Assembly: GCA_947172415.1 (NCBI GenBank)
Contig: OX359198.1
Coordinates: 3,131,401 to 3,195,400, forward strand
DNA from: Chondrosia reniformis
Taxonomy: Eukaryota; Porifera; Demospongiae; Chondrillida; Chondrillidae
Length of the DNA: 64,000 nucleotides
Direction: 5' to 3'
The notes under the pieces were generated by a model. The model saw only the letters and a program-made list of their open reading frames with translations. It ran no database searches and was not told the origin of the DNA. The position numbers and the translations under genes are program-made. Shown here one piece after another: positions 1 to 51,059 of the stretch. Position 1 is the stretch's first letter. Every line of letters starts with the position of its first letter.

Positions 1-1157
1 GATCTTATATATGTATTATATATCTTATATGTAATATATATTGTATACATTTTATATGCATATTATATATCTTATATATTGCATATATATGTAGAGTCAA
101 AAGTGAGTGGTATATAAATAGAACTGCATTTACAACATATATTGTGGAACCCACGTACCGATGGTGTTATGGATTACATCGTCTGGATACAAGTTACGAG
201 GATGCCTTGGTTCAATACCTAGTTGGGTCCTGAAAAGAGAAAAAAAGCATACATCTTATATATGTATTATATATCTTATATGTATTATATATTGTATATA
301 TCTTATATGCAAATAATATATCTTATATATTGCATATATATGTAGAGTCAAAAGTGAGTGGTATATAAATAGGACTTCATTTACGACAAATATTGTGGAA
401 CCCACGTGACCTATGGTGTTACGGATGACATCGTCTGGATACAGGGTACGAGGATGCCCTGGTTCAATACCAGGTTGGGTCCTGAAAAAAGAAAAAAAGC
501 ATACATCTTATATATGTATAACATATCTTATATGTAATATATATTGTATATATCTTATATGCATATAATATATCTTATATATTGCATATATATGTAGAGT
601 CAAAAGTGAGTGGTATATAAATAGGACTTCATTTACAACATATATTGTGGAACCCCCGTGACCGATGGTGTTACGGATGACATCGTCTGGAGACAAGGTA
701 CGAGGATGCCCTGGTTCAATACAAGGTTGGGCCCTGAAAATTGAAAAAAGCATACATCTTATATATGTATTATATAACTTATAGGTATTTTATATTGTAT
801 ATATCTTATATGCATATAATATATCTTATATATTGCATATATATGTAGAGTCAAAAGTGAGTGGTATATAAATAGGACTTCATTTACAACATATATTGTG
901 GAACCCACATGACCGATGGTGTTACGGATGACATCGTCTGGATACAAGGTACGAGGATGCCCTGGTTCAATACAAGGTTGGGTCCTGAAAATTGAAAAAA
1001 AGCATACATCTTATATATGTATTTTATATCTTATAGGTATTATATATTGTATATATCTTATATGCATGTAATATATATTATATATTGCATATATATGTAG
1101 AGTCAAAAGTGAGTGGTATATAAATAGGACTTCATTTACGACATATATTGTGGAACC

Positions 1158-1163
1158 CACGTG
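1158..1163 (+). promoter_or_regulatory. CACGTG E-box in satellite A monomer (representative)
   Basis: The palindrome CACGTG lies in the context CCCACGTGACC. It is present in many satellite A monomers, while others carry CACATG or CCCGTG at the same place. CACGTG is the core site of basic helix-loop-helix-zipper factors. Whether it is bound here is unknown. Confidence 0.4.
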
Positions 1164-1370
1164 ACCGATGGTGTTATGGATGACATCTTGTTGATACCAG
1201 GTACGGGGATTCCCTGGTTTAATACCTGGTTGAGTCCTGAAAAGAGGAAAAAAAGCATACATCTTATATATGTATTATATATCTTATATGTAATATATAT
1301 TGTATGTATCTTATATGCATATTATATATCTTATATATTGCATATATAAGTAGAGTCAAAATGAGTGGTA

Positions 1371-1489
1371 TATAAATAGGACTTCATTTACGACATATAT
1401 TGTGGAACCCACATGACCTATGGTGTTATGGATGACATCGTCTGGATACAAGGTACGAGGATGCCCTGGTTCAATACCAGGTTGGGTCC
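1371..1489 (+). promoter_or_regulatory. Pol III-like module in satellite A monomer (representative)
   Basis: This monomer shows a TATA box (TATAAATA, 1371-1378), then about 25 bp later a tRNA-like block. The block opens with GGAACCCA, which can pair with TGGGTCC at 1483-1489 if one A is bulged. It ends with a T-arm-like hairpin: stem CCTGG/CCAGG (1465-1469 and 1477-1481) around the 7-base loop TTCAATA. The word GGTTCAATACC (1468-1478) fits the Pol III B box GGTTCRANNCC. A weak A-box-like word (TGACC.ATGG) lies about 50 bp upstream. An A-rich tail follows and no TTTT terminator is seen. This suggests descent from a tRNA-derived SINE. Other monomer types break the T-arm (for example CCTGG against CCTGG), so activity is not implied. 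Confidence 0.45.
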
Positions 1490-2865
1490 TGAAAAAAGAA
1501 AAAAAGCATACATCTTATATATGTATTATATATCTTATATGTAATATATATTGTATATATCTTATATGGATATTATATATCTTATATATTGCATATATAA
1601 GTAGAGTCAAAAGTGAGTGGTATATAAATAGGACTTCATTTACGACATATATTGTGGAACCCACGTGACCTATGGTGTTACGGATGACATCGTCTGGATA
1701 CAAGGTACGAGGATGCCCTGGTTCAATACAAGGTTGGGTCCTGAAAATTGAAAAAAAGCATACATCTTATATATGTATTTTATATCTTATAGGTATTATA
1801 TATTGTATATATCTTATATGCATATAATATATATTATATATTGCATATATATGTAGAGTCAAAAGTGAGTGGTATATAAATAGGACTTCATTTACGACAT
1901 ATATTGTGGAACCCACGTGACCGATGGTGTTATGGATGACATCTTGTTCATACCAGGTACGGGGATTCCCTGGTTTAATACCTGGTTGAGTCCTGAAAAG
2001 AGGAAAAAAAGCATACATCTTATATATGTATTATATATCTTATATGTAATATATATTGTATGTATCTTATATGCATATTATATATCTTATATATTGCATA
2101 TATAAGTAGAGTCAAAATGAGTGGTATATAAATAGGACTTCATTTACGACATATATTGTGGAACCCACATGACCTATGGTGTTATGGATGACATCGTCAG
2201 GATACAAGCTACGAGGATGCCCTGGTTCAATACCAGGTTGGGTCCTGAAAAAAGAAAAAAAAGCATACATCTTATATATGTATTATATATCTTATATGTA
2301 ATATATATTGTATATATCTTATATGGATATTATATATCTTATATATTGCATATATAAGTAGAGTCAAAAGTGAGTGGTATATAAATAGGACTTCATTTAC
2401 GACATATATTGTGGAACCCACGTGACCTATGGTGTTACGGATGACATCGTCTGGATACAAGGTACGAGGATGCCCTGGTTCAATACAAGGTTGGGTCCTG
2501 AAAAAAGAAAAAAAGCATACATCTTATATATGTATTACATATCTTATATGTATTATATATTGTATATATCTTATGTGCATATAATATATCTTATATATTG
2601 CATATATATGTAGAGTCAAAAGTGAGTGGTATATAAATTGGACTTCATTTACGACATATATTGTGGAACCCACGTGACCGATGGTGTTATAGATGACATC
2701 TTCTCGATACCAGGTACGAGGAGTCCCTGGTTCAATACCTGGTTGGGTCCTGAAAAGAGGAAAAAAAGCATACATCTTATATATGTATTATATATATTAT
2801 ATGTAATATATATTGTATATATCTTATATGGATATTATATATCTTATATATTGCATATATAAGTA

Positions 2866-3365
2866 GAGTCAAAAGTGAGTGGTATATAAATAGGACTTCA
2901 TTTACAACATATATTGTGGAACCCCCGTGACCGATGGTGTTACGGTATCCATCGTCTGCATACAAGCTACGAGTATGCCCTGGTTCAATACCAGGTTGGG
3001 TCCTGAAAAAAGAAAAAAAGCATACATCTTATATATGTATTATATATCTTAAATGTAATATATATTGTATATATCTTATATGCATATTATATATCTTATA
3101 TATTGCATATATATGTAGTCAAAAGTGAGTGGTATATAAATAGGACTTCATTTACAACATATATTGTGGAACCCCCGTGACCGATGGTGTTACGGTATCC
3201 ATCGTCTGCATACAAGCTACGAGTATGCCCTGGTTCAATACCAGGTTGGGTCCTGAAAAAAGAAAAAAAGCATACATCTTATATATGTATTATATATCTT
3301 AAATGTAATATATATTGTATATATCTTATATGCATATTATATATCTTATATATTGCATATATATG
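2866..3365 (+). repeat. Exact 250-bp tandem duplication within satellite A
   Basis: Copies 2866-3115 and 3116-3365 look identical base for base, including the private change GTTACGGTATCCATC and the shortened TGTAGTC in place of TGTAGAGTC. This is a very recent one-monomer duplication. Confidence 0.85.
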
Positions 3366-5126
3366 TAGTCAAAAGTGAGTGGTATATAAATAGGACTTCA
3401 TTTACGACATATATTGTGGAACCCCCGTGACCGATGGTGTTACGGATGACATCGTCTGGATACAAGGTACGAGGATGCCCTGGTTCAATACAAGGTTGGG
3501 TCCTGAAAATTGAAAAAAAGCATACATCTTATATATGTATTATATATCTTATAGGTATTATATATTGTATATATCTTATATGCATATAATATATCTTATA
3601 TATTGCATATATATGTAGAGTCAAAAGTGAGTGGTATATAAATAGGACTTCATTTACGACATATATTGTGGAACCCACGTGACCGATGGTGTTATGGATG
3701 ACATATTGTTGATACCAGGTACGGGGATTCCCTGGTTTAATACCTGGTTGAGTCCTGAAAAGTGGAAAAAAAGAATACATCTTATATATGTATTATATAT
3801 CTTATATGTAATATATATTGTATGTATCTTATATGCATATTATATATCTTATATATTGCATATATAAGTAGAGTCAAAATGAGTGGTATATAAATAGGAC
3901 TTCATTTACGACATATATTGTGGAACCCACGTGACCTATGGTGTTATGGATGACATCGTCAGGATACAAGCTACGAGGATGCCCTGGTTCAATACCAGGT
4001 TGGGTCCTGAAAAAAGGAAAAAAAGCATACATCTTATATATGTATTATATATCTTACATGTGATATATATTGTATATATCTTATATGGATATTATATATC
4101 TTATATATTGCATATATAAGTAGAGTCAAAAGTGAGTGGTATATAAATAGGACTTCATTTACAACATATATTGTGGAACCCCCGTGACCGATGGTGTTAC
4201 GGTATCTATCGTCTGGATACAAGGTACGAGGATGCCCTGGTTCAATACAAGGTTGGGTCCTGAAAATTGAAAAAAAGCATACATCTTATATATGTATTAT
4301 ATATCTTATAGGTATTATATATTGTATATATCTTATATGCATATAATATATCTTATATATTGCATATATATGTAGAGTCAAAAGTGAGTGGTATATAAAT
4401 AGGACTTCATTTACGACATATATTGTGGAACCCACGTGACCGATGGTGTTATGGATGACATCTTGTTGATACCAGGTACGGGGATTCCCTGGTTTAATAC
4501 CTGGTTGAGTCCTGAAAAGAGGAAAAAAAGCATACATCTTATATATGTATTATATATCTTATATGTAATATATATTGTATGTATCTTATATGCATATTAT
4601 ATATCTTATATATTGCATATATAAGTAGAGTCAAAATGAGTGGTATATAAATAGGACTTCATTTACGACATATATTGTGGAACCCACGTGACCTATGGTG
4701 TTATGGATGACATCGTCAGGATACAAGCTACGAGGATGCCCTGGTTCAATACCAGGTTGGGTCCTGAAAAAAGAAAAAAAAGCATACATCTTATATATGT
4801 ATAATATATCTTATATGTAATATATATTGTATATATCTTATAGGCATATTATATATCTTATATATTGCATATATATGTAGAGTCAAAAGTGAGTGGTATA
4901 TAAATAGGACTTGATTTACGACATATATTGTGGAACCCACGTGACCGATGGTGTTACGGATGACATCTTCTGGATACAAGGTACTAGGATGCCCTGGTTC
5001 AATACCAGGTTGGGTCCTGAAATAAGAAAAAAAAGCAAAGATCTTATATATGTATTATATATCTTATATGTAATATATATTTTATATATCTTATATGCAT
5101 ATTATATATCTTATATATTGCATATA

Positions 5127-5675
5127 CAGTGGGCTCTCATTTATCCGGACCTGATTTATCCGGAAATCTCATATATCCGGTGTTTGAACTTAGGAACAAA
5201 AATTTTGCCATACAAAAGTATAGGAAATTATACTGAGTTATCCGAAACTGGGATATCCGTATCCGGCACTGCAGCGTGGGAACCACGCGCTGATTCTCCA
5301 TACATTTCACACTTATCCGTCCGACTTTGAAGTATTTTTAAAGAAGATTCTGTTGATATCGGGCGAACAACGATTAGTGATATCCTTCGTGATGCAGACA
5401 AGTGGGCCAGCGTTGAGGACTCCAGCTCGACCAAGCACTGTCAGGGACGTTTTGCGCAGCTAGAGGAGGCTCTTTGGATTTGGTTCGGCAATATTCGCTC
5501 TCAAAGTTTGTCCATTTCACCTATTCCTTTTGAAGAGCTTGTACTATATAGCACTGTCTTTCTGTCTTTCTTCCATGATAAAGGTAACTGTATGTCTATA
5601 TTTCTTATCCGACATCTCATTTATCCAGCACATTTTGCTGGGAACAAATGTCGTCGGATAAATGAGAGCCCACTG
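5127..5675 (+). mobile_element. Tigger/pogo-type non-autonomous DNA transposon
   Basis: A 549-bp element with perfect 21-bp terminal inverted repeats beginning CAGTGGGCTCTC and ending GAGAGCCCACTG. It is flanked by TA on both sides (5125-5126, 5676-5677), the expected target duplication of the Tc1/mariner superfamily. Removing it with one TA restores the normal satellite A sequence TTGCATATATATGTAGAG. Repeated ATCCG words follow the left end (5144, 5156, 5173, 5238, 5252, 5310), as in Tigger-like ends. Its middle keeps a piece of transposase DNA-binding domain, so it is an internally deleted descendant of an autonomous element. Confidence 0.88.
5331..5519 (+). pseudogene. Tigger/CENP-B-type transposase HTH remnant
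   Basis: After an in-frame TGA at 5328-5330, one frame reads through residues including VDIGRTTISDIL, DKWASVED and FAQLEEALWIWFGNIRS. These resemble the end of the first helix-turn-helix (the ..STVSDIL.. helix) and the following CENP-B/Tc5-type DNA-binding domain (..LEEALYEWF...R..) of Tigger and pogo transposases. The catalytic DDE domain is missing, so no function remains. The frame stays open beyond 5519 toward the right inverted repeat, but I see no further similarity. The family assignment rests on motif recognition only. Confidence 0.7.
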
Positions 5676-8600
5676 TATATGTAGAGTCAAAAGTGAGTGG
5701 CATATAAATAGAACTTCATTTACAACATATATTGTGGAACCCATTTGACCTATGCTGTTACGGATGACATCGTCTGGATACAAGGTACGAGGATACCCTG
5801 GTTAAATACCAGGTTGGGTCCTGAAAAAAGAAAAAAAGCATACATCTTATATATGTATTATACATCTTATATGTAATATATATTGTATATATCTTATATG
5901 CATATTATATATCTTATATATTGCATATATATGTACAGTCAAAAGAGAGTGGTATATAAATAGGACATCATTTACAAAATATATTGTGGAACCCACGTGA
6001 CCGATGGTGTTACGGATGACATCTTCTGGATACAAGGTACTAGGATGCCCTGGTCAATACCAGGTTGGGTACTGAAATAAGAAAAAAAAGCAAAGATCTT
6101 ATATATGTATTATATATCTTATATGTAATATATATTGTATACATTTTATATGCATATTATATATCTTATATATTGCATATATATGTAGAGTCAAAAGTGA
6201 GTGGTATATAAATAGGACTTCATTTACGACAAATATTGTGGAACCCACGTGACCTATGGTGTTACGGATGACATCGTCTGGATACAGGGTACGAGGATGC
6301 CCTGGTTCAATACCAGGTTGGGTCCTGAAAAAAGAAAAAAAGCATACATCTTATATATGTATAACATATCTTATATGTATTATATATTGTATATATCTTA
6401 TATGCATATAATATATCTTATATATTGCATATATATGTAGAGTCAAAAGTGAGTGGTATATAAATAGGACTTCATTTACAACATATATTGTGGAACCCCC
6501 GTGACCGATGGTGTTACGGATGACATCGTCTGGAGACAAGGTACGAGGATGCCCTGGTTCAATACAAGGTTGGGCCCTGAAAATTGAAAAAAGCATACAT
6601 CTTATATATGTATTATATAACTTATAGGTATTTTATATTGTATATATCTTATATGCATATAATATATCTTATATATTGCATATATATGTAGAGTCAAAAG
6701 TGAGTGGTATATAAATAGGACTTCATTTACAACATATATTGTGGAACCCACATGACCGATGGTGTTACGCATGACATCGTCTGGATACAAGGTACGAGGA
6801 TGCCCTGGTTCAATACAAGGTTGGGTCCTGAAAATTGAAAAAAAGCATACATCTTATATATGTATTTTATATCTTATAGGTATTATATATTGTATATATC
6901 TTATATGCATGTAATATATATTATATATTGCATATATATGTAGAGTCAAAAGTGAGTGGTATATAAATAGGACTTCATTTACGACATATATTGTGGAACC
7001 CACGTGACCGATGGTGTTATGGATGACATCTTGTTGATACCAGGTACGGGGATTCCCTGGTTTAATACCTGGTTGAGTCCTGAAAAGAGGAAAAAAAGCA
7101 TACATCTTATATATGTATTATATATCTTATATGTAATATATATTGTATGTATCTTATATGCATATTATATATCTTATATATTGCATATATAAGTAGAGTC
7201 AAAATGAGTGGTATATAAATAGGACTTCATTTACGACATATATTGTGGAACCCACATGACCTATGGTGTTATGGATGACATCGTCAGGATACAAGCTACG
7301 AGTATGCCCTGGTTCAATACCAGGTTGGGTCCTGAAAAAAGAAAAAAAGCATACATCTTATATATGTATTATATATCTTAAATGTAATATATATTGTATA
7401 TATCTTATATGCATATTATATATCTTATATATTGCATATATATGTAGTCAAAAGTGAGTGGTATATAAATAGGACTTCATTTACAACATATATTGTGGAA
7501 CCCCCGTGACCGATGGTGTTACGGATGACATCGTCTGGATACAAGGTACGAGGATGCCCTGGTTCAATACAAGGTTGGGTCCTGAAAATTGAAAAAAAGC
7601 ATACATCTTATATATGTATTATATATCTTATAGGTATTATATATTGTATATATCTTATATGCATATAATATATCTTATATATTGCATATATATGTAGAGT
7701 CAAAAGTGAGTGGTATATAAATAGGACTTCATTTACGACATATATTGTGGAACCCACGTGACCGATGGTGTTATGGATGACATATTGTTGATACCAGGTA
7801 CGGGGATTCCCTGGTTTAATACCTGGTTGAGTCCTGAAAAGTGGAAAAAAAGCATACATCTTATATATGTATTATATATCTTATATGTAATATATATTGT
7901 ATGTATCTTATATGCATATTATATATCTTATATATTGCATATATAAGTAGAGTCAAAATGAGTGGTATATAAATAGGACTTCATTTACGACATATATTGT
8001 GGAACCCACGTGACCTATGGTGTTATGGATGACATCGTCAGGATACAAGCTACGAGGATGCCCTGGTTCAATACCAGGTTGGGTCCTGAAAAAAGGAAAA
8101 AAAGCATACATCTTATATATGTATTATATATCTTACATGTAATATATATTGTATATATCTTATATGGATATTATATATCTTATATATTGCATATATAAGT
8201 AGAGTCAAAAGTGAGTGGTATATAAATAGGACTTCATTTACAACATATATTGTGGAACCCCCGTGACCGATGGTGTTACGGATGACATCGTCTGGATACA
8301 AGGTACGAGGATGCCCTGGTTCAATACCAGGTTGGGTCCTGAAAATTGAAAAAAAGCATACATCTTATATATGTATTATATATCTTATAGGTATTATATA
8401 TTGTATATATCTTATATGCATATAATATATCTTATATATTGCATATATATGTAGAGTCAAAAGTGAGTGGTATATAAATAGGACTTCATTTACGACATAT
8501 ATTGTGGAACCCACGTGACCGATGGTGTTATGGATGACATCTTGTTGATACCAGGTACGGGGATTCCCTGGTTTAATACCTGGTTGAGTCCTGAAAAGAG

Positions 8601-10272
8601 GAAAAAAAGCATACATCTTATATATGTATTATATATCTTATATGTAATATATATTGTATGTATCTTATATGCATATTATATATCTTATATATTGCATATA
8701 TAAGTAGAGTCAAAATGAGTGGTATATAAATAGGACTTCATTTACGACATATATTGTGGAACCCACGTGACCTATGGTGTTATGGATGACATCGTCAGGA
8801 TACAAGCTACGAGGATGCCCTGGTTCAATACCAGGTTGGGTCCTGAAAAAAGAAAAAAAAGCATACATCTTATATATGTATAATATATCTTATATGTAAT
8901 ATATATTGTATATATCTTATAGGCATATTATATATCTTATATATTGCATATATATGTAGAGTCAAAAGTGAGTGGTATATAAATAGGACTTGATTTACGA
9001 CATATATTGTGGAACCCACGTGACCGATGGTGTTATGGATGACATCTTGGTGATACCAGGTACGGGGATTCCCTGGTTTAATACCTGGTTGAGTCCTGAA
9101 AAGAGAAAAAAAGGATTCATCTTATATATGTATTATATATCTTATATGTAATATATATTGTATGTATCTTATATGCATATTATATATCTTATATATTGCA
9201 TATATAAGTAGAGTCAAAATGAGTGGTATATAAATAGGACTTCATTTACGACATATATTGTGGAACCCACGTGACCTATGGTGTTATGGATGACATCGTC
9301 AGGATACAAGCTACGAGGATGCCCTGGTTCAATACCAGGTTGGGTCCTGAAAAAAGAAAAAAAAGCATACATCTTATATATGTATAATATATCTTATATG
9401 TAATATATATTGTATATATCTTATAGGCATATTATATATCTTATATATTGCATATATATGTAGAGTCAAAAGTGAGTGGTATATAAATAGGACTTGATTT
9501 ACGACATATATTGTGGAACCCACGTGACCGATGGTGTTATGGATGACATCTTGGTGATACCAGGTACGGGGATTCCCTGGTTTAATACCTGGTTGAGTCC
9601 TGAAAAGAGAAAAAAAGGATTCATCTTATATATGTATTATATATCTTATATGTAATATATATTGTATATATCTTATATGCATATTATATATCTTATATAT
9701 TGCATATATATGTAGAGTCAAAAATTAGTGGTATATAAATAGGACTTCATTTACGACATATATTGTGGAACCCACGTGACCTATGGTGTTACGGTTGACA
9801 TCGTTAGGATACAAGGTACGAGGGTGCCCTGTTCAATACCAGGTTAAGTCCGGAAAAAAAAAAGGGTACATCTTATATATGTATTATATATTTTATATGT
9901 AATATATATTGCATATATCTTATATGCATGTTATATATCTTATATATTGCATATCTATGTAGAGTCAAAAGTGAGTGGTATATAAATAGGACTTCATTTA
10001 CAACATATATTGTGGAACCCACGTGACCGATGGTGTTATGGATGACATCTTCTGGATACCAGGTACGAAGATGCTCTGGTTCAACACCTGGTTGGGTCCT
10101 GAAAATAGAAAAAAAAGCATACATCTTATATATTTAATATATATTGTATATATCTTATATGTATATTATATATTATATATATTGCATATATATGTAGAGT
10201 CTAAAGTGAGTGGTATATAAATAGGACTTCATTTACGACATATATTGTGGAATCCACGTGACCGATGGTGTT

Positions 10273-13200
10273 ACCGAGTTCAAAATGGCCGCCGATTTCC
10301 AAAATATATGGGCTATAAAGCCGTAACCAAGATTTTCGCATAATAAAATTGGACGCCAAATGTGATTAAGGGGTTCCCGATTCTCTACGACCTATCACCG
10401 TGTTAAAATGGCCACCAATTTCGAAAATATTGGCTATGAAGCCATCCCAATGACCTTTCGTAAGATAAAAAAGGCCACCGAAATCGATTAAGGGATCCCT
10501 GAAGCTCTACGCCCTGTCACCGAGTTAAAAATGGTCGCTGGTTTCGAAAATATGGGCTAAGAAGGCGTACCGAAGATTTTCGTATAATAAAAATGGCCGC
10601 CGAATTCGATTAAGGGGTCCCCGATTCTCTACGACCTATCACCGTGTTAAAATGGCCGCCGATTTCGAAAATATGGGCTATGAAGCTATAACCAAGATTT
10701 TTGTATCATAAAAAATTACCGCCGAACTCGGTTAAGGGGTCCCGATGCTCAACGACCTATCACCGAGTTAAAAATGGCCGCCAGTTTCAAAAATATGGGC
10801 TATGAAGCCGTAACCAAGATTTTCGTATATTAAAAATGGCCGCCGAATTTGATTATGGGGTCCACGAAGCTCTGCGAACATTCACCGAGTTCAAAATGGC
10901 TGCTGATTTCGAAAATATGGGCTATGAAGCCGTAGCGAAGTCCTTTTGTAGGATAAAAATATCGGCTATGAAGCCGTACTGAAGATTTGCGTATAATAAA
11001 AATGGCCGCCGAACTCGATTAAAGGGTCCACGAAGCTCTACGACCAATCACCGAGTTAAAAATGGCCGGCGGTTTCGAAAATTTGGGCTATGAAGTCTTA
11101 ACCAAGATTTTGGTATAATAAAAATGGCAACCGAACTCGATTAAGGGGTCCCCGATTTTCTACAATCTATCACCGTGTTAAAATGGACGCCGATATCGAA
11201 AATATGAGCTATGAAGCTGTAACCAAGATTTTCGTATAATAAAAATGGCCGCCGAACTTGATTAAGGGGTCCACGACGCTCTACGACTAATCGCCGATTT
11301 CCAAATGGCCGCCGATTTCCAAAAATATGAACTATGAAGCTGTAACCAAGATTTTCGTATTATAAAAATGTCCGCCGAACTCGATTAAGGCGTCCCGGAT
11401 TCTCTACGACCCATCAACATGTTAAAATGGACTCCGATTTCGAAAATATGGGCTATGAAGCTGTAACCAAGATTTTCTTATAATAAAAATGGCCGCCGAA
11501 GTCGATTAAGGGGTCCCCGATTCTCTACGACCTTTCACCATGTTAAAATGGCCGCCGATTTCGAAAATATGGGCTATCAAGCCTTACCGAAAACCGTTCC
11601 TTGGATAAAAATGGCCACCGGACTCCATTAAAGGGTCCCCGTAGCTCTACGACATATCGCTGAGTTAAAAATGGCCGCCGATTTCGAAAATTTGGGCTAT
11701 GAAGCCATTCCGAATACCGTTCCTTGGATAAGAATGGTCGCCGGACTCGATTAAAGGGTCCCCGAAGCTCTACGACCTATCGTCGAGTTAAAAATGGCCG
11801 CCGATTTCATAAAAATGGCTATTAAGCCGTACCGAAGACCGTCCTTGGATAAAAATGGCCGCCAGACTCGATTAAAGGGTCCCCGAAGCTCTACAACCTA
11901 TCGCTAAGTTAAAAATGGCCGCCTATTTCGAAAAAATAGGCTATGAAGTCGTACCGAAGATCTTTCCTCGGATAAAAATGGCCGCCGCACTCGATTAAAG
12001 GGTCCCCGAAGCTCTCCGACCTATCTTCGACTTAAAAATGGCCGCCGATTTCGAAAATATGGGCTATGACGCCTTACCGAAGACCGTTCCTTGGATAAAA
12101 ATGGCCACCGGACTCCATTAAAGGGTCCCCGTAGCTCTACGACATATCGCTAAGTTAAAAATGGCCGCCGATATCGAAAATTTGGGCTATGAAGCCATAC
12201 CGAAGACTGTTCCTTGGATAAGAATGGCCGCTGGACTCGATTAAAGGGTCCCTGAAGCTCTACGACCTATCGTCGAGTTAAAAATGGCCGCCGATTTCAA
12301 AAAAATGGCTATGAAGCCGTACCGAAGACCATCCTTGGATAAAAATGGCCGCCGATTTCGAAAGATATAGGCTATGAAGTCGTACCGAAGATCTTTCCTC
12401 GGATAAAAATGGCCGCCGGAGTCGAATAAAGGGTCCCCAAAGCTATACGACGTATGGTCGAGTTAAAAATGGCCGCCGATATCGAAAATTTGGGCTATGA
12501 AGCCATACCGAAGACTGTTCCTTGTATAAAAATGGCCGCGGGACTCGATTAAAGGGTCCCCAAAGCTCTACGACCTATCGTCGCGTTAAAAATGGCCGCC
12601 GATTGCGAAAATATGGTCTATGAAGCCGTAACGAAGACCGTTCCTTGGATAAAAATGGACGCCACACTCGATTAAAGGGTCCCCGAAGCTCTAGGACCTA
12701 TCACTAAGTTAAAAATGGCCGCCGATTTCGAAAAAATGGGCTATGAAGCCATACCGAAGACGGTTCCTTGGATAAAAATGGCCGCCGGACTCGATGAAAG
12801 GGTCCCCGAAGCTCTACAACCTATCGCTAAGTTAAAATGGTCGCCGATTTCGAAAAAAGGGCTATGAAGCAGTACCGAAGACCGTTCCTTGGATAAAAAT
12901 GGCCGCTGGACTCGATTAAAGGGTCCCCGAAGGTCAAAGACCTATCACCGAGTTGAAAATGGCCGCCGATTTCCAAAATATATGAACTATGAAGCCGTAA
13001 CCAAGATTTTCGTATAATAAAAATGTCCGCCGAACTCAATTAAGGGGTCCCCGATTCTCTACGACCTATCAGTGTGTTAAAATGGCCGCCGATTTCGAAA
13101 ATATGGGCTATGGAGCTGTTACCAAGATTTTCGTAAAATATAAATGGCCGCCGAAGTCGATTAAGGGGTCCCCGATTCTCTACGACCAATCACCGTGTTA

Positions 13201-13388
13201 AAATGGCCGCCGATTTCGAAAATATGAGCTATAAAGCTGTAACCAAGATTTTCTTATAATACAAATGGCCGCCGAAGTCGATTAAGGGGTCCCCGATTCT
13301 CTACGCCCTTTCAACGTGTTAAAATGGCCGCCGATTTCGAAATTATGGGCTATCACTCCTTACCGAAGACAGTTCCTTGGATAAAAAT
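10273..13388 (+). repeat. Satellite B, left arm (123-bp unit)
   Basis: About 25 diverged copies of a 123-bp unit made of two related half-units, each opening with AAAATGGCCGCC. The first half continues GATTTCGAAAATATGGGC and the second GA(A/C)TCGATTAA(A)GGGTCCCC. Two subfamilies are visible. Units with ATTTTCGTATAATAAAAATG dominate 10273-11540 and 12950-13340, and units with GTTCCTTGGATAAAAATGG dominate 11560-12930. Copies here are more divergent than in the right arm. The A/B junction lies at GTGTTAC|CGAGTTC. The array stops at 13388 inside a monomer, directly after GGATAAAAATG, where satellite C begins. Confidence 0.95.
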
Positions 13389-13843
13389 GTATGTACAAGT
13401 TGTATGTACTAGTTGTATGTTCTAGTTCTATGTACTAGTTGTATGTTCTAGTTCTATGTACTAGTAGTGTGTACTCATTGCTACCTGTGTGTACTAGTTC
13501 TATGTACTAGTTTTATATACTAGTTATATGCGCATGTTCTAGTTACATATATGTCATAGTTGTATGTACAAGTTGTATGTACTAGTTGTATGTACTAGTT
13601 GTAAGTAGTATTTGTTTGATCTAGTTTTATGTAGGTATGTGTACCACTGCTATGTACTAGTTACATTTACTAAGTATAGTTACTGATTGTATGTACTACT
13701 TGTATATACTAGTGGTGAGAAATTCTGTATGTACTAGTTACATACACTAGTTGTAGTTACTGGTCGTATGTACAAGTTGTTTGTACTAGATTTATGTATT
13801 AATGTATAGATATATGTAGTAGTTATATGTACTAGATCTATGT

Positions 13844-13970
13844 ATCTTTGTAAAGATTCATTGGCAGAGAGAAGAGTCCACTAAACTTTGTTTCTAGACA
13901 CTCCCAAAGTCGCAAGATAAACCTTTACAAAGATAAGTTCGGCACATTTAGAAGATTCCATTCTAGATCT
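13844..13970 (+). repeat. 127-bp hairpin block, copy 1
   Basis: Non-minisatellite DNA bounded by a 12-bp perfect inverted repeat, ATCTTTGTAAAG (13844-13855) and CTTTACAAAGAT (13923-13934), with AGATCT close to both outer edges. It could be a tiny MITE-like insertion that was then amplified with the array. No coding content is seen. Confidence 0.6.
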
Positions 13971-32836: not shown

Positions 32837-33480
32837 ATTTGGGTGCCTGTTAAACGTCATAAGACGTCATTTTATGATGGCTCAACTATACTACTAATTT
32901 TGGCTGACAATCACGTGACAATACCATTACTTGAAGGAGAAGAGACAAATGGAAAACGAACCGATTATTAGACAGTGGAGAATTGTATATCTAACCATTT
33001 TTTGACATCAATCTCTTCAGTAAGTAACAGCCTAAAAGTTGTATGTATACTCCTGGAATATTCCCTTGTTTAACTGAGATATGAAGTACTAGAGGCGCCT
33101 GATAAAGGTACGAAAATACGTTTTCAATTATAATTCAAAAACTAAAGGGAATTTAAAAGGAATATACATACCATCGTTAGATATCATTATCCTTCATAGA
33201 TTGGTGTCACCATTTATTCTATATTCGTATTTTCCACTATCTAATAAAACATTTTTGGGGATTTGGCACCTATCACTTACGGCCGCTTACGTTCTCCTTT
33301 AAGACTGCAATCGTGACGCTCTTGTAGCCAAGATATTAAGAAAGAATAGCGCTTCAATTCTATATAACTTGTTTAGTGATACGATGTTTCTAAAGTAAAA
33401 TAGAATAAATTAAAAAAGAGTGTTAGTTAGCGACTTTTATCGAAACTTTCCGGAAGTATGGACATGTTCCACTAGCGTAG
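32837..33480 (+). mobile_element. 3' half of the 21121 element, carried by segmental duplication
   Basis: Sequence from TTTGGGTGCCTG onward matches 21753-22395 almost exactly. It then continues into the same minisatellite flank as 22396-22870 (to about 33954). The left edge is an abrupt join to ...CATTTAATACTTGTA. Since flank and element moved together, this is a duplicated block and not a transposition. Confidence 0.82.
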
Positions 33481-33954
33481 TTATATTTACTAGTTTTATG
33501 TACTAGGTGTATGTACTACTTGTATTTACTAGTTCTATGTACTAGTTGTTTGAACTAGCTGTATGTAGTTATATGTACTACATGTGTGCACTAGTTGTGT
33601 GTAATTGTTTATGTACTAGTTATATATACTAGTTGTAGTTACTAGTTGTATGTACTAGTTGTATGTAGTAGTTGTATGTACTAGTTGTACGTGCTAGTAA
33701 CTAGATAATTGCACTAGTTCTATGTACTAGTTCTGTGTACTTGTTTTATGTACTAGTTGAAAGTACTAGTTCTTTATAAGTTCTAGTTAGTAGTTGTATG
33801 TACTAGTTATATGTATTAGTTATATGTACTAGCTGTATATACTAGTTGTATTTACTAGTTGTATGTACTAGTTGTTTGAACTAGTTTTATGTAGTTTTAT
33901 GTACTACTTGTTTGTACTAGTTGTGCGAAATTTGTGTATGTACTAGTTACTAGT

Positions 33955-34528
33955 TGATCAGAAATAATCACTGGAACGTATTACGCCATACCAGCCAAGT
34001 GACCGAAGTCTGATCTTGGCTGGGGGACCGAAGTCCTATTAAGTTGGCAACCAGTGATCGCCTCCCAGTCATCCAAAGATGGAAAAAAATTCATCAAAGA
34101 ACCACAGACAACTGTTTCGCCCTCATTTGGGCTCATCAGTGTGGTACACTTCAGTGATGGTAAATTGGATGACTGCCCTCACTTATAAATACACCACAAG
34201 TGAAACACTTGTGGTTTCATTTTAAGTGAGGATGGAGGCTACAGTCTAAGTGAGACTGAGCACTCACAATGACAAAGGGAGTTAATTGCACTATGCCTGT
34301 GCAAAGGCTAAAATGATCAGAAATAATCACTGGAACGTATTACGCCATACCAGCCAAGTGACCGAAGTCTGATCTTGGCTGGGGGACCGAAGTCCTATTA
34401 AGTTGGCAACCAGTGATCGCCTCCCAGTCATCCAAAGATGGAAAAAAATTCATCAAAGAACCACAGACAACTATTTCTGATCATTTTAGCCTTTGCACAG
34501 GCTTAGTGCAATTAACTCCCTTTGTCAT
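33955..34528 (-). mobile_element. Penelope-like or retrozyme-like fragment with hammerhead ribozyme
   Basis: Non-satellite DNA made of one 359-bp unit (33955-34313, opening TGATCAGAAATAATCACTGG), a second partial unit (34314-34472) and a 56-bp inverted piece (34473-34528). The inverted piece is the reverse complement of 34269-34324 apart from about one base. The first unit holds a complete hammerhead ribozyme on the minus strand; the second is cut within it. Hammerhead ribozymes are known in the pseudo-LTRs of Penelope-like retroelements and in short animal retrozymes. Partial tandem units with an inverted 5' truncated piece are typical of Penelope insertions. No reverse transcriptase or GIY-YIG domain is present, so the two possibilities cannot be separated here. 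Confidence 0.7.
34092..34159 (-). ncRNA. Type I hammerhead ribozyme
   Basis: Read on the minus strand, all core elements appear in order: outer stem I arm CATCA, internal loop, inner stem I arm ACCACA, core CTGATGA, stem II GCCC/GGGC with loop AAATGA, core GAAAC, loop AGTT, cleavage triplet GTC, then TGTGGT and TGATG closing stem I. Inner stem I pairs 6 of 6 and the outer 5 of 5. Stem III is only two base pairs (A-U, C-G), as in minimal hammerheads of Penelope-like elements, which often act as dimers. Predicted cleavage is between 34107 and 34106. The role would be self-cleavage of the element's RNA. Confidence 0.87.
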
Positions 34529-34632
34529 AGTTACTAGTTGTATGTACGAGTTGTTTGAACTAGCTGTATGTAGTTATATGTAGTACATGTGGGCACTAGT
34601 TGTGCGAAATTTGTGTATGTACAAGTTATATA

Positions 34633-36750
34633 TACTGTAAGAGCTAGTTGTTGTATGTACTAGTTGTATGTACTAGTTAGATATACTAGTTTTATGTACT
34701 AGTTGTATGTACTAGTTAGTTGCATGTCCTAGTTGTAGATAGTAGTTGCATGTACTACTAACTAGTTGAATGGACTAGTTATATGTACTAGTGGTATTTA
34801 CTAGTTGTATACACTAGTTGTATATACCATTTCTATGCACTATTTCTATGTACTAGTTGTAATAGTTGTATGTACTAGTAACTAGTTGAATGGACTAGTT
34901 ATATGTACTAGTGGTATTTACTAGGTGTATGAAGTAGTTGTACGTATTAGTAACAATAATTATTTAATACTTGAATGTACTAGTTGTATGTACTAGTTAG
35001 ATGTATTAGTTGCATGTACTAGTTGTATGTACTATTTGTATGTACTATTAGCCATCTGTGTGTACTATTTGTATGCCCTAGTTGTATGTATTAGTTGTAT
35101 GTACTAGTTGTATATACAAGTTATATGTACTGGCTATATGAACTAGTTCTATGTAATACTTATTGTACTAGTTGTTAGTACTAGTTGTATGGAGTAGTTG
35201 TATGTTCTATTTGTGTGTAGTAGTAACTAGTTGTATGTACTAGTTATATGTACTCATTGTATGTACTAGCTGTATGTACTAGTTGTATGTACTAATTGTT
35301 TATTATACTTGTATGTAAAAGTTGAATTTACTAGTAACTAGTTGTATATACTACTTGTAAGTACTAGTTGTATGTACATGTTATATGTACTAGTTGTATG
35401 TACTAGTTATAGTAATAGTTGTACGTACTAATTGAATGCACTATTTGTATATTCTAGTTGTATGTACTAGTTGGATGTAGTAGTAACTAGTTATATGCAG
35501 TAGTTATATGTACTATTTGTATATAATAGCTTTATGTACTAGTTGAATGTACTAGTAACAAACTGTATTTACTACTTGTATATACTAGTTGTATGAACTA
35601 GTTTTATGTAGTTATATGTACTAAATATATATTCTAGCTATATTTACTAATTGTAGTTACTAGTTGTAGGGACTAGTTGTATGTACTAGTTGTATGTACT
35701 AGTTAGATATACTAGTTGTATATACTAGTTCTATATATTAGTCCTACTAGTTGTTCAAAATAGTCGTATGTACTAGTAACACTCTGCATTTAATACTTGT
35801 ATGTCCTAGTTGTATGTACTAGTTGTATTTACCAGTTGTAGTTACTAGTTGTATATACTAGTTGTATGTACTACTTGTATGTACTACTTGTATGTACTAG
35901 TTGTGTGCAATTGTTCTATGTATACTTATTTGTACTAGTTGTATATACTAACTTTTAGGTACTAATTATATGTACTAATTGTATGTACTAATTGTGTGTA
36001 ATAGTTGTGTGTTCTAGTTATTTGTACTAGTTATTTGTACTAGTTGTAGTTATTAGTTGTAACAATTGTATGTACTAGTTGCTTTTATTAGTAACTATCT
36101 GTATGTCCTAGTTGTATGTACTAGTTTTATGTCCTAGTTGTAGGACTAGTTGTATGTACTAGTTGTATGTACTGGTAGTTGTTCTAGTTTATGTACTATT
36201 TATATGAACTAGTTATATGTATATGTATTGGTTAAATATAATAATTGTATGTACTAGTTATATGTACTCGTTATATGTACTAGGTCTATGGACTAGTTGT
36301 AGTTCTAGTTGTATTTACTAGTTGTATGTACTAGTCGTATGTACTAGTTGTATGTACTAGTTGTTTGTACTCATTGAATGTACTATTTAAATGTACAATG
36401 CAGTTGTATGTACTATATAGTTGTAAGTACACACTAATAGTTGCTTGTTCTAGTTGTATGCACTAGCATTTGTTGTATTCACTAGTTGGAGGTTCTATTT
36501 GTATTTACTCAATTGTAAGTAGTGGTTGCATGTTGTAATTATTTGTAGTAATTTTAGGTACTACTTTTGTGCTAGTTGTATGTTCTGATCGTATGTAATA
36601 GTTTTATGTACTTGTTATATATATTAGTTGCATGTATAAACTAGTTCTATGTACTAGTAGTATGTTCTAGTTTTATGTACTATATATAAGTACTAGTTAT
36701 ATGTATAAGTACTGATTGCATACACCAGTTGGATGTATTAGTTATATGTA
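34633..36750 (+). repeat. Higher-order unit H4 of satellite C (partial)
   Basis: 34633-35800 repeats 31669-32836 at a constant offset of 2964 bp, then continues as in H2 up to a deletion near 36750. The 32837-34632 block (element piece plus hammerhead element) therefore sits between two copies of the same unit segment. Confidence 0.8.
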
Positions 36751-49085: not shown

Positions 49086-51059
49086 CTTTGAATCCTCGAT
49101 TATCTTGATCACAAAATTACCTTGCACATGACACATGGATTATGCAATTATTACACCAACGTATGCGAATGTGACACCTTTCAGTCGTGCTAAAGTTTTT
49201 TGCTCGATCGAGGATGACGGAGTCTACTAACGCTGCGAAGCCTAAGCGAAAGAGAACAGTTTTAAGTATTGAAGACAAAGTGGCCATCATAAAGCAGCTA
49301 GAGAGCAGCTCTGCTAACGTTATTGCCGAACGCTATGGCATTGGAAAGGACACAGTCTTGGATATTAAGAAGAAGCGGGATAAGATCCTTTGCTTCAACC
49401 AGGAGATGCACAACATGGGTATTAGTAAAAAGGCAAAAGTAACGAAGGTCTGAGATGACGAACAGCATGATAAGGCCGTCTACTTATGGTTCAAACAAAA
49501 GCGGATGGAGGGTATACCTATCTCAGGCCCGATATTGTGTGAAAAAGCTGTCCAGCTGCACAAGAAGATGTGCGGTGAAGAGTCAAGTTTCTCTGGAAGT
49601 ACAGGTTGGCAATGGAGGTTCTGCAAGAGGCACGGAATATGCAACTTGTCCCTTGAAGGTGAGAAATTATCTGCTGATACAGAAGCAAGTGCAGCTTTCG
49701 TCACATCTTTCAGGGAATTCGTTGAAGAGCCCCAGCTTACTCTCAATCAAATTTTCAATTGTGATTAGACTGGACTTAACTTTCGCTTGTTTTCAGACAA
49801 GACACTAGCTGCTTCCTTTGAGCACTCTGCTGATGGAAGAAAGCTGAGCAAAGAGAGAGTCACAATCAATGCCTGTGCAAATGCTACAGGCACCATCAAG
49901 TTACCTCTCCAGGTTAACGGAAAAGCAAAACACCCTAGGTGTTTTAGGGGTTTGAGGATGGCCTTCCTGCCTGTGGAGTACTGTGGCCAGAAAAGTGCAT
50001 GGAAGAGCTCCTAGATTTTTCATGCCTGGTTTCACAACTCATTCATCCCTACAGTACGCAAAGAGCTCTCTTCTCTTGGCTTTGAGCCAAAAGCTGTTCT
50101 GGTGCTGGATAATTGCCCTGCCAACCCCAGTGAAGAAGCCCTCATTAGTGATGATGGAAAGATCACAGCCCTTTACTTGCCACCAAATTTCACTTCCTTG
50201 TTTCAACCAATGGATCAAGGGGTACATATGGCACTCAAGTGCCACTACAAGATGAAATTGTTACGAAGGCTATTGATAGAAGATGAGAATGGCGTATCTC
50301 TCATTGATTTCCTGAAGTCATTGAATATGAAAATTGTCACAGAGCTAATCGCAGAGTCATGGGGTGAAATCAAAGAATCCACACTACGCAAGTCGTGGAG
50401 AAAGATCATGCCTATTCAAGAACCAAAGGAGAGTGAAGATCAGACTGAAGGAGAGGAAGATGTGCAAGAATTTATACATGAATTTCAGGAGTTGGGATAC
50501 AGTATGGATGAAAATGAGATAAGTTCCTGGCTTAAGAGTGATTCCAATGATCCTGGCTTTCAGCTGATTACAGATGATAAAATCAGTGACCATGTTCTCT
50601 CAGAGCAAGTGCCTGACCAGGAAGATGAGCCTGAACCAGAGGAAGGAGAATCGAATGTCTGTCCTGTCTCCAACTGGCAGCTCATATGATTGAGAAGTGC
50701 CTCACATGGCTTGAATACCAGCCTGAAGTAAATCCATACAACACATGCATGTTGAGAGAACTCCATGCCCTCGCAGTCCGTAAACGAGGAGAGTCCCTAA
50801 AACAGAGGACCTTACTAGAGATGCTACAAAAGTAAATGTATGTATGAGCACATGCATATGTATTTGTACAATGTTATAGAATGTTATACAATCATTAAAC
50901 TGATCTATACGTGTTTTGTTGGCGTGCTTGATCGTCCAAAGAAATCGTTCTACGGTTCTACATATTTGATTGTATTTCACTTATCCGAACTTTTCACTTA
51001 TCTGAATAAAATTTTTGTGCCATTTGACCAATGGGGTTCGGATAACCGAGGATTCACTG
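49086..51059 (+). mobile_element. Tigger/pogo-like DNA transposon, nearly full length
   Basis: A 1974-bp element flanked by TA (49084-49085 and 51060-51061). The terminal inverted repeats agree at 16 of the first 19 positions: left CTTTGAATCCTCGATTATC, right (other strand) CAGTGAATCCTCGGTTATC. The left end has mutated from the usual CAGTG. Extra CTTATCCGAAC/CTTATCTGAA words precede the right end. The interior is a transposase pseudogene. Confidence 0.88.
49214..50835 (+). pseudogene. Tigger/jerky-like DDE transposase, inactivated
   Basis: About 540 codons, the normal size for this family. From ATG 49214 a single frame carries a psq/CENP-B type helix-turn-helix (KRTVLSIEDKVAIIK.., IGKDTVLDIKKK; about residues 12-56), then the second DNA-binding domain (KAVYLWFKQKR, WQWRFCKRHGI), then the DDE core: NCD (49763), VLDNCPANP (Asp at 50108) and QPMDQGV (Asp at 50213), with 34 residues between the last two. 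Three stops interrupt this frame (TGA 49451, TAG 49766, TAG 50012). A frameshift near 50684-50690 moves the last 48 residues (..CLTWLEYQPE.., ending TAA 50833-50835) to another frame. The protein would have cut and pasted the element at TA sites in the nucleus. Confidence 0.9.

What the first reader, a model, noticed from the sequence alone, without database searches (positions are those of the whole stretch)
34092..34159. Complete type I hammerhead ribozyme on the minus strand
CTGATGA, GAAAC, the GTC cleavage triplet, a GCCC/GGGC stem II and both parts of stem I (ACCACA/TGTGGT and CATCA/TGATG) occur in the right order. Eleven of eleven stem I pairs form around an internal loop, the layout needed for tertiary contact. 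Chance occurrence is very unlikely. The host element is not otherwise identifiable and may be a new retrozyme or Penelope-like lineage.
Basis: partly seen in the sequence, partly recalled or inferred. Interest (0 to 1): 0.85.

Follow-up and report, generated by a model that had tools for sequence, protein, structure and literature searches.

The report
Sponge hammerhead retrozyme with Penelope-type ends
The window holds a small jumping element, apparently from a sponge, with a self-cutting RNA motif in its repeat unit, and the scars it leaves in the genome suggest that a Penelope-type retrotransposon moves it.

Summary
The hammerhead is real. RF00163 matches 34145-34101(-) with 31.9 bits, just under its cut-off of 34; some sister copies reach 34.6, and a 33-nt core pattern of the family occurs 186 times in the genome, its reversed control 0 times. 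Stems are conserved with compensated pairs. Contig sizes point to Chondrosia reniformis chromosome 10. The 359-bp unit is a non-LTR retrozyme found at 40 or more places. The window copy is a 571-bp fold-back insertion (33957-34527) with a 13-bp target duplication and one complete ribozyme. The new result lies in the junctions: in two families alike in little but the ribozyme, insertions end at two fixed internal sites about 46-55 nt apart, one per side, head to head: 29 of 30 insertions with two canonical ends, of 49 examined. That is the published Penelope-like element (PLE) signature. Divergent relatives of the family share an end motif, CAATAAACT-N7-TCAT, with a GIY-YIG PLE lineage of the same genome. 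In the papers seen here, PLE mobilisation of animal retrozymes is only proposed. Cleavage, circles and the enzyme reaction are inferred.

The parts
33944..33956 (.). left copy of the 13-bp target-site duplication TAGTTACTAGTTG
   Evidence: exact match to 34528-34540; it lies in ACTAGT-type satellite, so it is weak evidence for this copy alone
33957..34527 (.). whole retrozyme insertion, 571 bp, fold-back: antisense arm of about 1.45 units, then a short sense arm
   Evidence: (164-nt direct repeat, 60-nt inverted repeat)
33957..34315 (-). one complete 359-nt retrozyme unit (sense on minus)
   Evidence: 129 related pieces in the genome from 40 scored of 1,096 candidates; folds far better than shuffles, z -7.0
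34092..34159 (-). type I hammerhead ribozyme with extended stem I; cleavage expected between 34107 and 34106
34101..34145 (-). stretch matched by Rfam RF00163, 31.9 bits
34177..34231 (-). long hairpin beside the ribozyme (26-nt arms, 85% complementary)
34316..34477 (-). second, 5'-truncated unit; it holds only the 3' side of the ribozyme, no core
34472..34527 (+). sense arm after the inversion, ending at site B; short stretch shared by both arms at 34472-34477
34482..34527 (+). 46-nt 'tail' between the two inferred RT start sites, ending ..GCAATTAACTCCCTTTGTCA
   Evidence: site B is 19 of 49 outward 3' ends of the family
33957..33976 (-). left terminus = site A, sense 3' end ..TTTCTGAT
   Evidence: site A is 26 of 49 outward 3' ends of the family
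34528..34540 (.). right copy of the 13-bp target-site duplication

Best explanation
Inferred cycle: arrays of the 359-bp unit are transcribed; the hammerhead, probably as a pair of ribozymes joined through the palindromic stem III, cuts the RNA into units, which are ligated to circles. A PLE protein (RT plus GIY-YIG endonuclease) cuts both target strands about 8-15 bp apart and starts cDNA synthesis inside the RNA at two sites 46 nt apart, site A from one cut strand and site B from the other. The two cDNAs meet head to head and are joined, often at short shared sequences, giving a fold-back with one tailed and one tail-less end and a target duplication. Shown here: the unit, ribozyme conservation, copy number, the two fixed ends, their pairing, the target duplications, and an end motif shared by relatives of the family and a PLE lineage. 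Inferred: cleavage, circles, the enzyme, and whether one RNA serves both arms.
For: Ends: 45 of 49 outward 3' ends at 28 sites of the 359-bp family fall at site A (26) or B (19); in a second, 354-bp family 33 of 38 at 21 sites (A 17, B 16); insertions with two canonical ends are A+B in 17 of 18 and 12 of 12 (the position ranges were set). Target duplications: an exact stretch of 8 nt or more shared near both ends in 17 of 28 and 12 of 21, against 5.4% and 2.9% with flanks shuffled between sites. Published PLE anatomy matches: two internal RT start sites bounding the tail, both strands cut and extended (PMC11167929, parts 1-2 of 4 read); inverted pLTRs, 8-10 bp duplications, 31-bp tail on one side (PMC3846280, passages). 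Partner lead: divergent relatives L010, L013, L085 end ..CAATAAACTCCCC(C)TTTTCAT, while a PLE lineage with GIY-YIG, and with an RT match upstream at one compared place, ends ..CAATAAACTTCATATATCAT; pattern CAATAAACTN7TCAT has 192 hits against 7 reversed. PLE copy L082 shows A on one side and B on the other, about 33 nt apart (by eye).
Against: No RNA data here, so neither cleavage nor circles are shown. The window family itself has CAATTAACT at its end; the 354-bp family and two other PLE families lack the motif, so the precise partner is open, and the motif was noticed by eye before it was counted. It contains AATAAA and could partly reflect a polyadenylation signal, though none of the ends printed shows poly(A), by eye. 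Of the 100 listed of 192 motif hits, 21 are an unrelated chromosome-2 repeat. Two copies of the 997-aa PLE family showed no inverted pieces among the matches listed. Deviating insertions: 1 A+A, 8 with one non-canonical outward end, 11 without a second outward 3' end, of 49. The two arms of L044, L046 and L052 differ from each other (14.9, 5.8, 6.4%) more than from the nearest other insertion, and variant sharing between units is mixed, which speaks against one RNA for both arms there.
Confidence: 0.72

Rival explanations
1. The 359-bp unit is the solo pseudo-LTR of an autonomous PLE, not an independent retrozyme.
For: Same insertion anatomy as PLEs, and hammerhead motifs in both.
Against: Head-to-tail arrays of up to four complete 359-bp units plus parts in one arm, with no room for an ORF (L051, L062); PLE hammerheads read in the same genome are of other sequence types; the unit folds as a compact RNA. 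The flanks of 27 of 39 other sites were fetched but not searched for PLE genes one by one, and L052 lies about 1.3 kb from a GIY-YIG match.
Confidence: 0.12
2. A LINE-type enzyme moves it; the inversions are ordinary twin priming.
For: Target duplications of this size and 5' inversions are recalled for LINEs; large (15 bp) LINE-like duplications were noted for Nematostella repeats (PMC4918200, passage).
Against: Both outward ends sit at fixed RNA positions and are paired one A, one B; twin priming is recalled to start the second strand at scattered sites. No poly(A) seen at the ends printed. The published PLE enzyme shows the two-site behaviour. LINE insertions of this genome were not examined.
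Confidence: 0.08
3. A DNA-level fold-back or MITE-like transposon that happens to carry a hammerhead.
For: Terminal inverted repeats and target duplications.
Against: The two termini are different unit positions, not inverted copies of one end; arm lengths and inversion points vary; simple 5'-truncated copies exist.
Confidence: 0.03
4. Inactive satellite debris: the ribozyme is a relic without present function.
For: The window copy scores below the Rfam cut-off and the window has a single complete ribozyme.
Against: 186 core matches against 0 in the control; compensated pairs; some insertions look young, e.g. the two arms of L045 show no substitution over 362 columns.
Confidence: 0.05

Closest known systems
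Metazoan non-LTR retrozymes (Cervera and de la Pena 2020, PMC7229834; abstract, section 13, Discussion and passages seen)
   Same: Type I hammerhead in a tandem unit of 150-450 bp, compact predicted fold, no ORF, no LTR, target duplications larger than 4 bp
   Different: The parts read do not describe two fixed insertion ends, fold-back insertions or a tail ('inverted' has 0 occurrences); PLEs are named there only as a strong candidate mover
Penelope-like elements: PAc of Anolis (PMC11167929, parts 1-2 of 4 read) and Adineta Pen2a (PMC3846280, passages seen)
   Same: Two internal RT start sites with a tail between, inverted terminal copies, target duplications of similar size, type I hammerhead upstream of the start sites
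   Different: PLEs encode RT and GIY-YIG; the 359-bp unit encodes no such protein
Rfam RF00163 Hammerhead_1
   Same: Full-length match, conserved core and stems
   Different: Window copy 31.9 bits, below the cut-off of 34; very short stem III
Plant LTR retrozymes (PMC4918200 and PMC7761336, passages seen)
   Same: Hammerhead-bearing non-autonomous retroelement
   Different: Plant elements have LTRs, PBS, PPT and 4-bp duplications, and other hammerhead types

Membership tests
Type I hammerhead ribozyme (RF00163) | conserved core CUGANGA / GAAA / NUH and three stems, stem I open | tested here: met
Type I hammerhead ribozyme (RF00163) | score at or above the Rfam cut-off | tested here: inconclusive
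   window copy 31.9 of 34 bits, not met; some sister copies 34.6, met
Type I hammerhead ribozyme (RF00163) | self-cleavage | not testable with these tools
   needs in vitro transcription
Metazoan non-LTR retrozyme | type I hammerhead in short tandem units of 150-450 bp, dispersed | tested here: met
   359-bp units, up to four complete ones in one arm, at 40 places
Metazoan non-LTR retrozyme | no coding capacity, no LTR | tested here: met
   no ORF of 110 aa or more over 33957-34527; repeats found are the unit itself and its fold-back
Metazoan non-LTR retrozyme | no primer binding site or polypurine tract | not tested
   -
Metazoan non-LTR retrozyme | expressed as circular RNA | not testable with these tools
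   no transcript data held
Penelope-like element | ORF with RT and GIY-YIG | tested here: not met
   no ORF of 110 aa or more in the insertion
Penelope-like element | fixed ends at two internal sites with a tail between, inverted copy at the other end | tested here: met
   compared with PMC11167929 and PMC3846280

The most novel reading that the evidence does not exclude
Animal retrozymes are integrated by PLE proteins through an obligatory pair of different start sites on one circular RNA: the two halves of a PLE dimer prime from the two cut target strands, one at site A and one at site B, which makes head-to-head fold-backs the normal product. Retrozymes and PLEs of one genome would share these start sites.
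Probability: 0.4. Interest if true: 0.72.

Novelty: new member of a known kind. Interest (0 to 1): 0.55.

Why it matters
Which enzyme moves animal retrozymes is open in the papers seen here, which call PLEs (or LINEs) candidates (PMC7229834, PMC7761336, PMC8969392, PMC11722881). The two-site end signature gives genomic evidence for PLEs, points to a PLE lineage to test, and predicts exact start sites. The one-A-one-B rule would also constrain how PLEs themselves integrate; their inverted copies were earlier explained by self-priming on an antisense template (PMC3846280, passage).

Tried and rejected
Host first guessed as Ciona from the chromosome number (searched for it): dropped, since contig sizes match the Chondrosia reniformis assembly. 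Search for a PLE with the retrozyme's own terminal 65 nt: 43 matches, by place and identity all taken as retrozyme copies (sites not among the fetched ones were not read). Test of one template RNA by variants shared within an insertion: mixed. Variants seen in one insertion only are shared by all its units in L043, L047, L052, L058 and L065, but 8 of 24 multi-unit insertions, L062 and L051 among them, share none, and three have arms that differ more than neighbours do. Arm 5' ends at the ribozyme cleavage point, expected for linear cleaved templates: scattered in the 359-bp family, recurring at 154-157 in the 354-bp family (by eye), so no support. AATAAA as a polyadenylation signal that sets the ends: not excluded, but the ends printed lack poly(A) and other families lack the signal. 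Other weak Rfam matches (snoRNA, viral stem-loops, microRNA precursors) are below their cut-offs and were set aside. The pattern needs a nearly intact core, so decayed ribozymes are under-sampled.

Full report
Observation. Rfam Hammerhead_1 matches 34145-34101(-) end to end with 31.9 bits, E 5.7e-6 for 701 bases, under its cut-off of 34; the whole-window scan at the cut-off lists nothing. Sister copies in L045 and L062 score 34.6, other L062 copies 31.2 and 28, and relatives L010, L013 and L022 41.6, 40.3 and 37.1. Genome-wide, 73 of 11,921 first-look candidates were scored with RF00163 and 51 pass the cut-off; in 14 control genomes matches occur in 11, none over the cut-off. A degenerate 33-nt core pattern, no mismatch allowed, is found 99+87=186 times, its reversed control 0 times; the window copy differs from it at one base.

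Where it comes from. The window is G000:C10:3131401-3195400 of an assembly of 117,379,552 bases in 15 contigs. Of 13 contig lengths seen, 12 equal the printed chromosome lengths of Chondrosia reniformis odChoReni1.1 and C4 is off by 0.01 Mb; the printed total, 117,390,217 bp, differs by 11 kb (PMC12181767, abstract and passages; HiFi reads, 14 chromosomes plus mitochondrion). I take it as chromosome 10 of that sponge; no tool named the species.

The ribozyme. From 91 ribozyme-like stretches in fetched loci, some of them the same place held in overlapping loci, 39 distinct sequences were aligned, the window standing for one. Inner stem I, stem II and stem III form in 95.7, 98.7 and 98.7% of cells, outer stem I in 55.9%. 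Columns 15-59, 19-55 and 29-40 show a changed but standard pair in 17, 14 and 16 sequences. Overall 85.1% of cells pair, against 78.2% in shuffles and 29-41% when slid; the covariation score is 0.209 against 0.116 shuffled (0 of 500 reach it). Two measures do not exceed the shuffles: pairs with a change on both sides (6 against 5.9) and further pair types (14 against 16.2). The double changes follow the division into two families, so they are few events. Stem III is ACAGCUGU in most rows: two pairs in cis, a self-complementary octamer in trans. A co-fold of two identical family ribozymes gives the double hammerhead at -49.7 kcal/mol against 2 x -22.1 alone; the window variant, with ACAGUUGU, does not give that structure as its best fold. 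The 359-nt unit folds with z -7.0, 0 of 100 shuffles as good; the ribozyme alone with z -2.0, 6 of 200 as good.

The element. The unit gave 129 matched pieces from 40 scored of 1,096 candidates, at 40 places by my count, a lower bound. I examined 28 of these 40: the window and 27 fetched. The window insertion spans 33957-34527, bounded by TAGTTACTAGTTG on both sides. Read along the plus strand, it is an antisense arm of 1.45 units followed by a short sense arm ending ..TTTGTCA. The second unit lacks the ribozyme core, so the window has one complete ribozyme and this copy cannot release a unit by two cuts. Other sites hold up to four complete units plus parts in one arm (L051, L062; three in L059).

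Two fixed ends. An outward 3' end is an insertion edge at which the RNA-sense strand runs out into the flank. In the 359-bp family 49 such ends were found at 28 sites: 26 at site A (unit position 354-359), 19 at site B (40-50), 4 elsewhere. In the 354-bp family, which aligns to the first well over the ribozyme and weakly elsewhere, 38 ends at 21 sites: 17 A (346-354), 16 B (47-66), 5 elsewhere. The ranges were set after seeing the ends. Insertions with two canonical ends are A+B in 17 of 18 and 12 of 12; with independent choice about half would be, P 4.9e-5 and 2.4e-4. The other 19 of 49 insertions are 8 with one non-canonical outward end and 11 with fewer than two outward 3' ends; one two-ended case is A+A. 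L040 and L042 have nearly the same flanks and may be one event; without one the count is 28 of 29. The 354-bp sites come from the 30 top-scoring loci (L009-L038): loci of one insertion were counted once, and L010, L012, L013 and L014 were left out as other subfamilies. An exact stretch of 8 nt or more shared near both ends occurs at 17 of 28 and 12 of 21 sites, 8-15 nt long, against 5.4% and 2.9% with shuffled flanks.

Match to Penelope-like elements. Frangieh et al. 2024 (PMC11167929, parts 1 and 2 of 4 read) report that the purified Anolis protein cuts and extends both target strands and starts reverse transcription at two internal RNA sites, and that the sequence between them is the genomic 'tail'; they saw no difference in start site between the strands, which does not by itself predict my A+B rule. 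Arkhipova et al. 2013 (PMC3846280, passages) describe inverted pLTRs, 8-10 bp duplications in some copies and none in others, and a 31-bp tail on one side. The sponge retrozymes have this anatomy with tails of 46 and about 50-55 nt. In both, the start sites lie downstream of the hammerhead: about 150 and 196 nt from the cleavage point here (counted on the unit printed), 85-92 nt in the Anolis element (from numbers).

A partner lead in the same genome. The genome gave 150 scored GIY-YIG matches (of 382 candidates) and 150 scored matches to a PLE RT query (of 270). Divergent relatives of the 359-bp family (L010, L013, L085) end ..GTGCAATAAACTCCCC(C)TTTTCAT. A PLE lineage with a GIY-YIG domain (L068; Pfam E 2.8e-6) and a minimal hammerhead ends ..CAATAAACTTCATATATCAT. 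The pattern CAATAAACTN7TCAT has 192 hits against 7 reversed; of the 100 places listed, counted by eye, 68 are PLE-type, 8 retrozyme-type, 21 an unrelated chromosome-2 repeat (L083, no hammerhead) and 3 other. Of 7 motif places that I picked by eye for comparison, 5 lie 307-782 bp downstream of a GIY-YIG match to L068 on the same strand (C3, three on C5, C7), one of them with an RT match further upstream. PLE copy L082 has a tail-less inverted left end at this motif and a right end about 33 nt further, with a shared flank of about 12 bp (by eye). The window family has CAATTAACT at the same place; the 354-bp family, the 997-aa PLE family and the L076-L078 family do not show the motif at their ends. 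It is a lead, not proof of one partner.

How it most likely works. Transcription of arrays, cleavage by paired hammerheads, ligation to circles, then capture by a PLE protein that primes from both cut strands at sites A and B. The last step is supported by the junctions; the earlier ones follow published work on other animal retrozymes (PMC7229834) and are not shown here. The near-exclusive A+B pairing suggests that the two sites are used together, as by two subunits. Whether one RNA serves both arms is not settled: insertion-specific variants are shared by both arms in some insertions, but in L044, L046 and L052 the arms differ by 14.9, 5.8 and 6.4%, more than from the nearest other insertion.

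Novelty. Retrozymes, type I hammerheads and PLE anatomy are known. I saw no report of retrozymes in sponges or of the PLE two-site signature in retrozymes in the listings of searches of an open-access library or in the parts of papers read; key papers such as Cervera and de la Pena 2014 are not held, so this is not proof of absence. A 2024 review (PMC11722881, passages) still lists LINEs or PLEs as possible movers. I file the element as a new member of a known kind, with junction evidence that makes an open question testable.

Noticed in passing
L079 (C2:5997000-6004000), L080 (C1:4316400-4323400): A PLE family with a 997-aa open frame, GIY-YIG near the N-terminus (126-159; 21.8 bits, just under the Pfam cut-off), two copies 99% alike, a hammerhead-like motif upstream, ends at ..TTAGATTTTTCAT; resembles the Naiad type (name recalled).
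   Followed up: partly
L081 1-1701 (C2:8763900-8765600): Four to five tandem repeats of about 267-273 bp made of the last part of the CAATAAACT-type PLE end plus about 190 bp of other sequence, as if flank was captured and copied in tandem.
   Followed up: no
354-bp family loci L009, L011, L019-L022: 5' ends of arms recur at unit positions 154-157, just before the ribozyme, not at the cleavage site.
   Followed up: no
C2, about 2.51-3.99 Mb (L083): CAATAAACTGGGA(A/G)TCTCAT recurs 21 times in this stretch among the 100 places listed; L083 shows no hammerhead.
   Followed up: no
window 1-10151, 10273-13389, 13388-13844 and 33400-35000: 252-bp satellite, a ~122-bp repeat with a recurring AAAATGGCCGCCGA motif, and a 13-bp TGTATGTACTAGT-type satellite that also flanks several retrozyme and PLE insertions.
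   Followed up: no
window 50102-50689 (+): Transposase fragment with a DDE_1 domain (Pfam PF03184, E 2.2e-14).
   Followed up: partly
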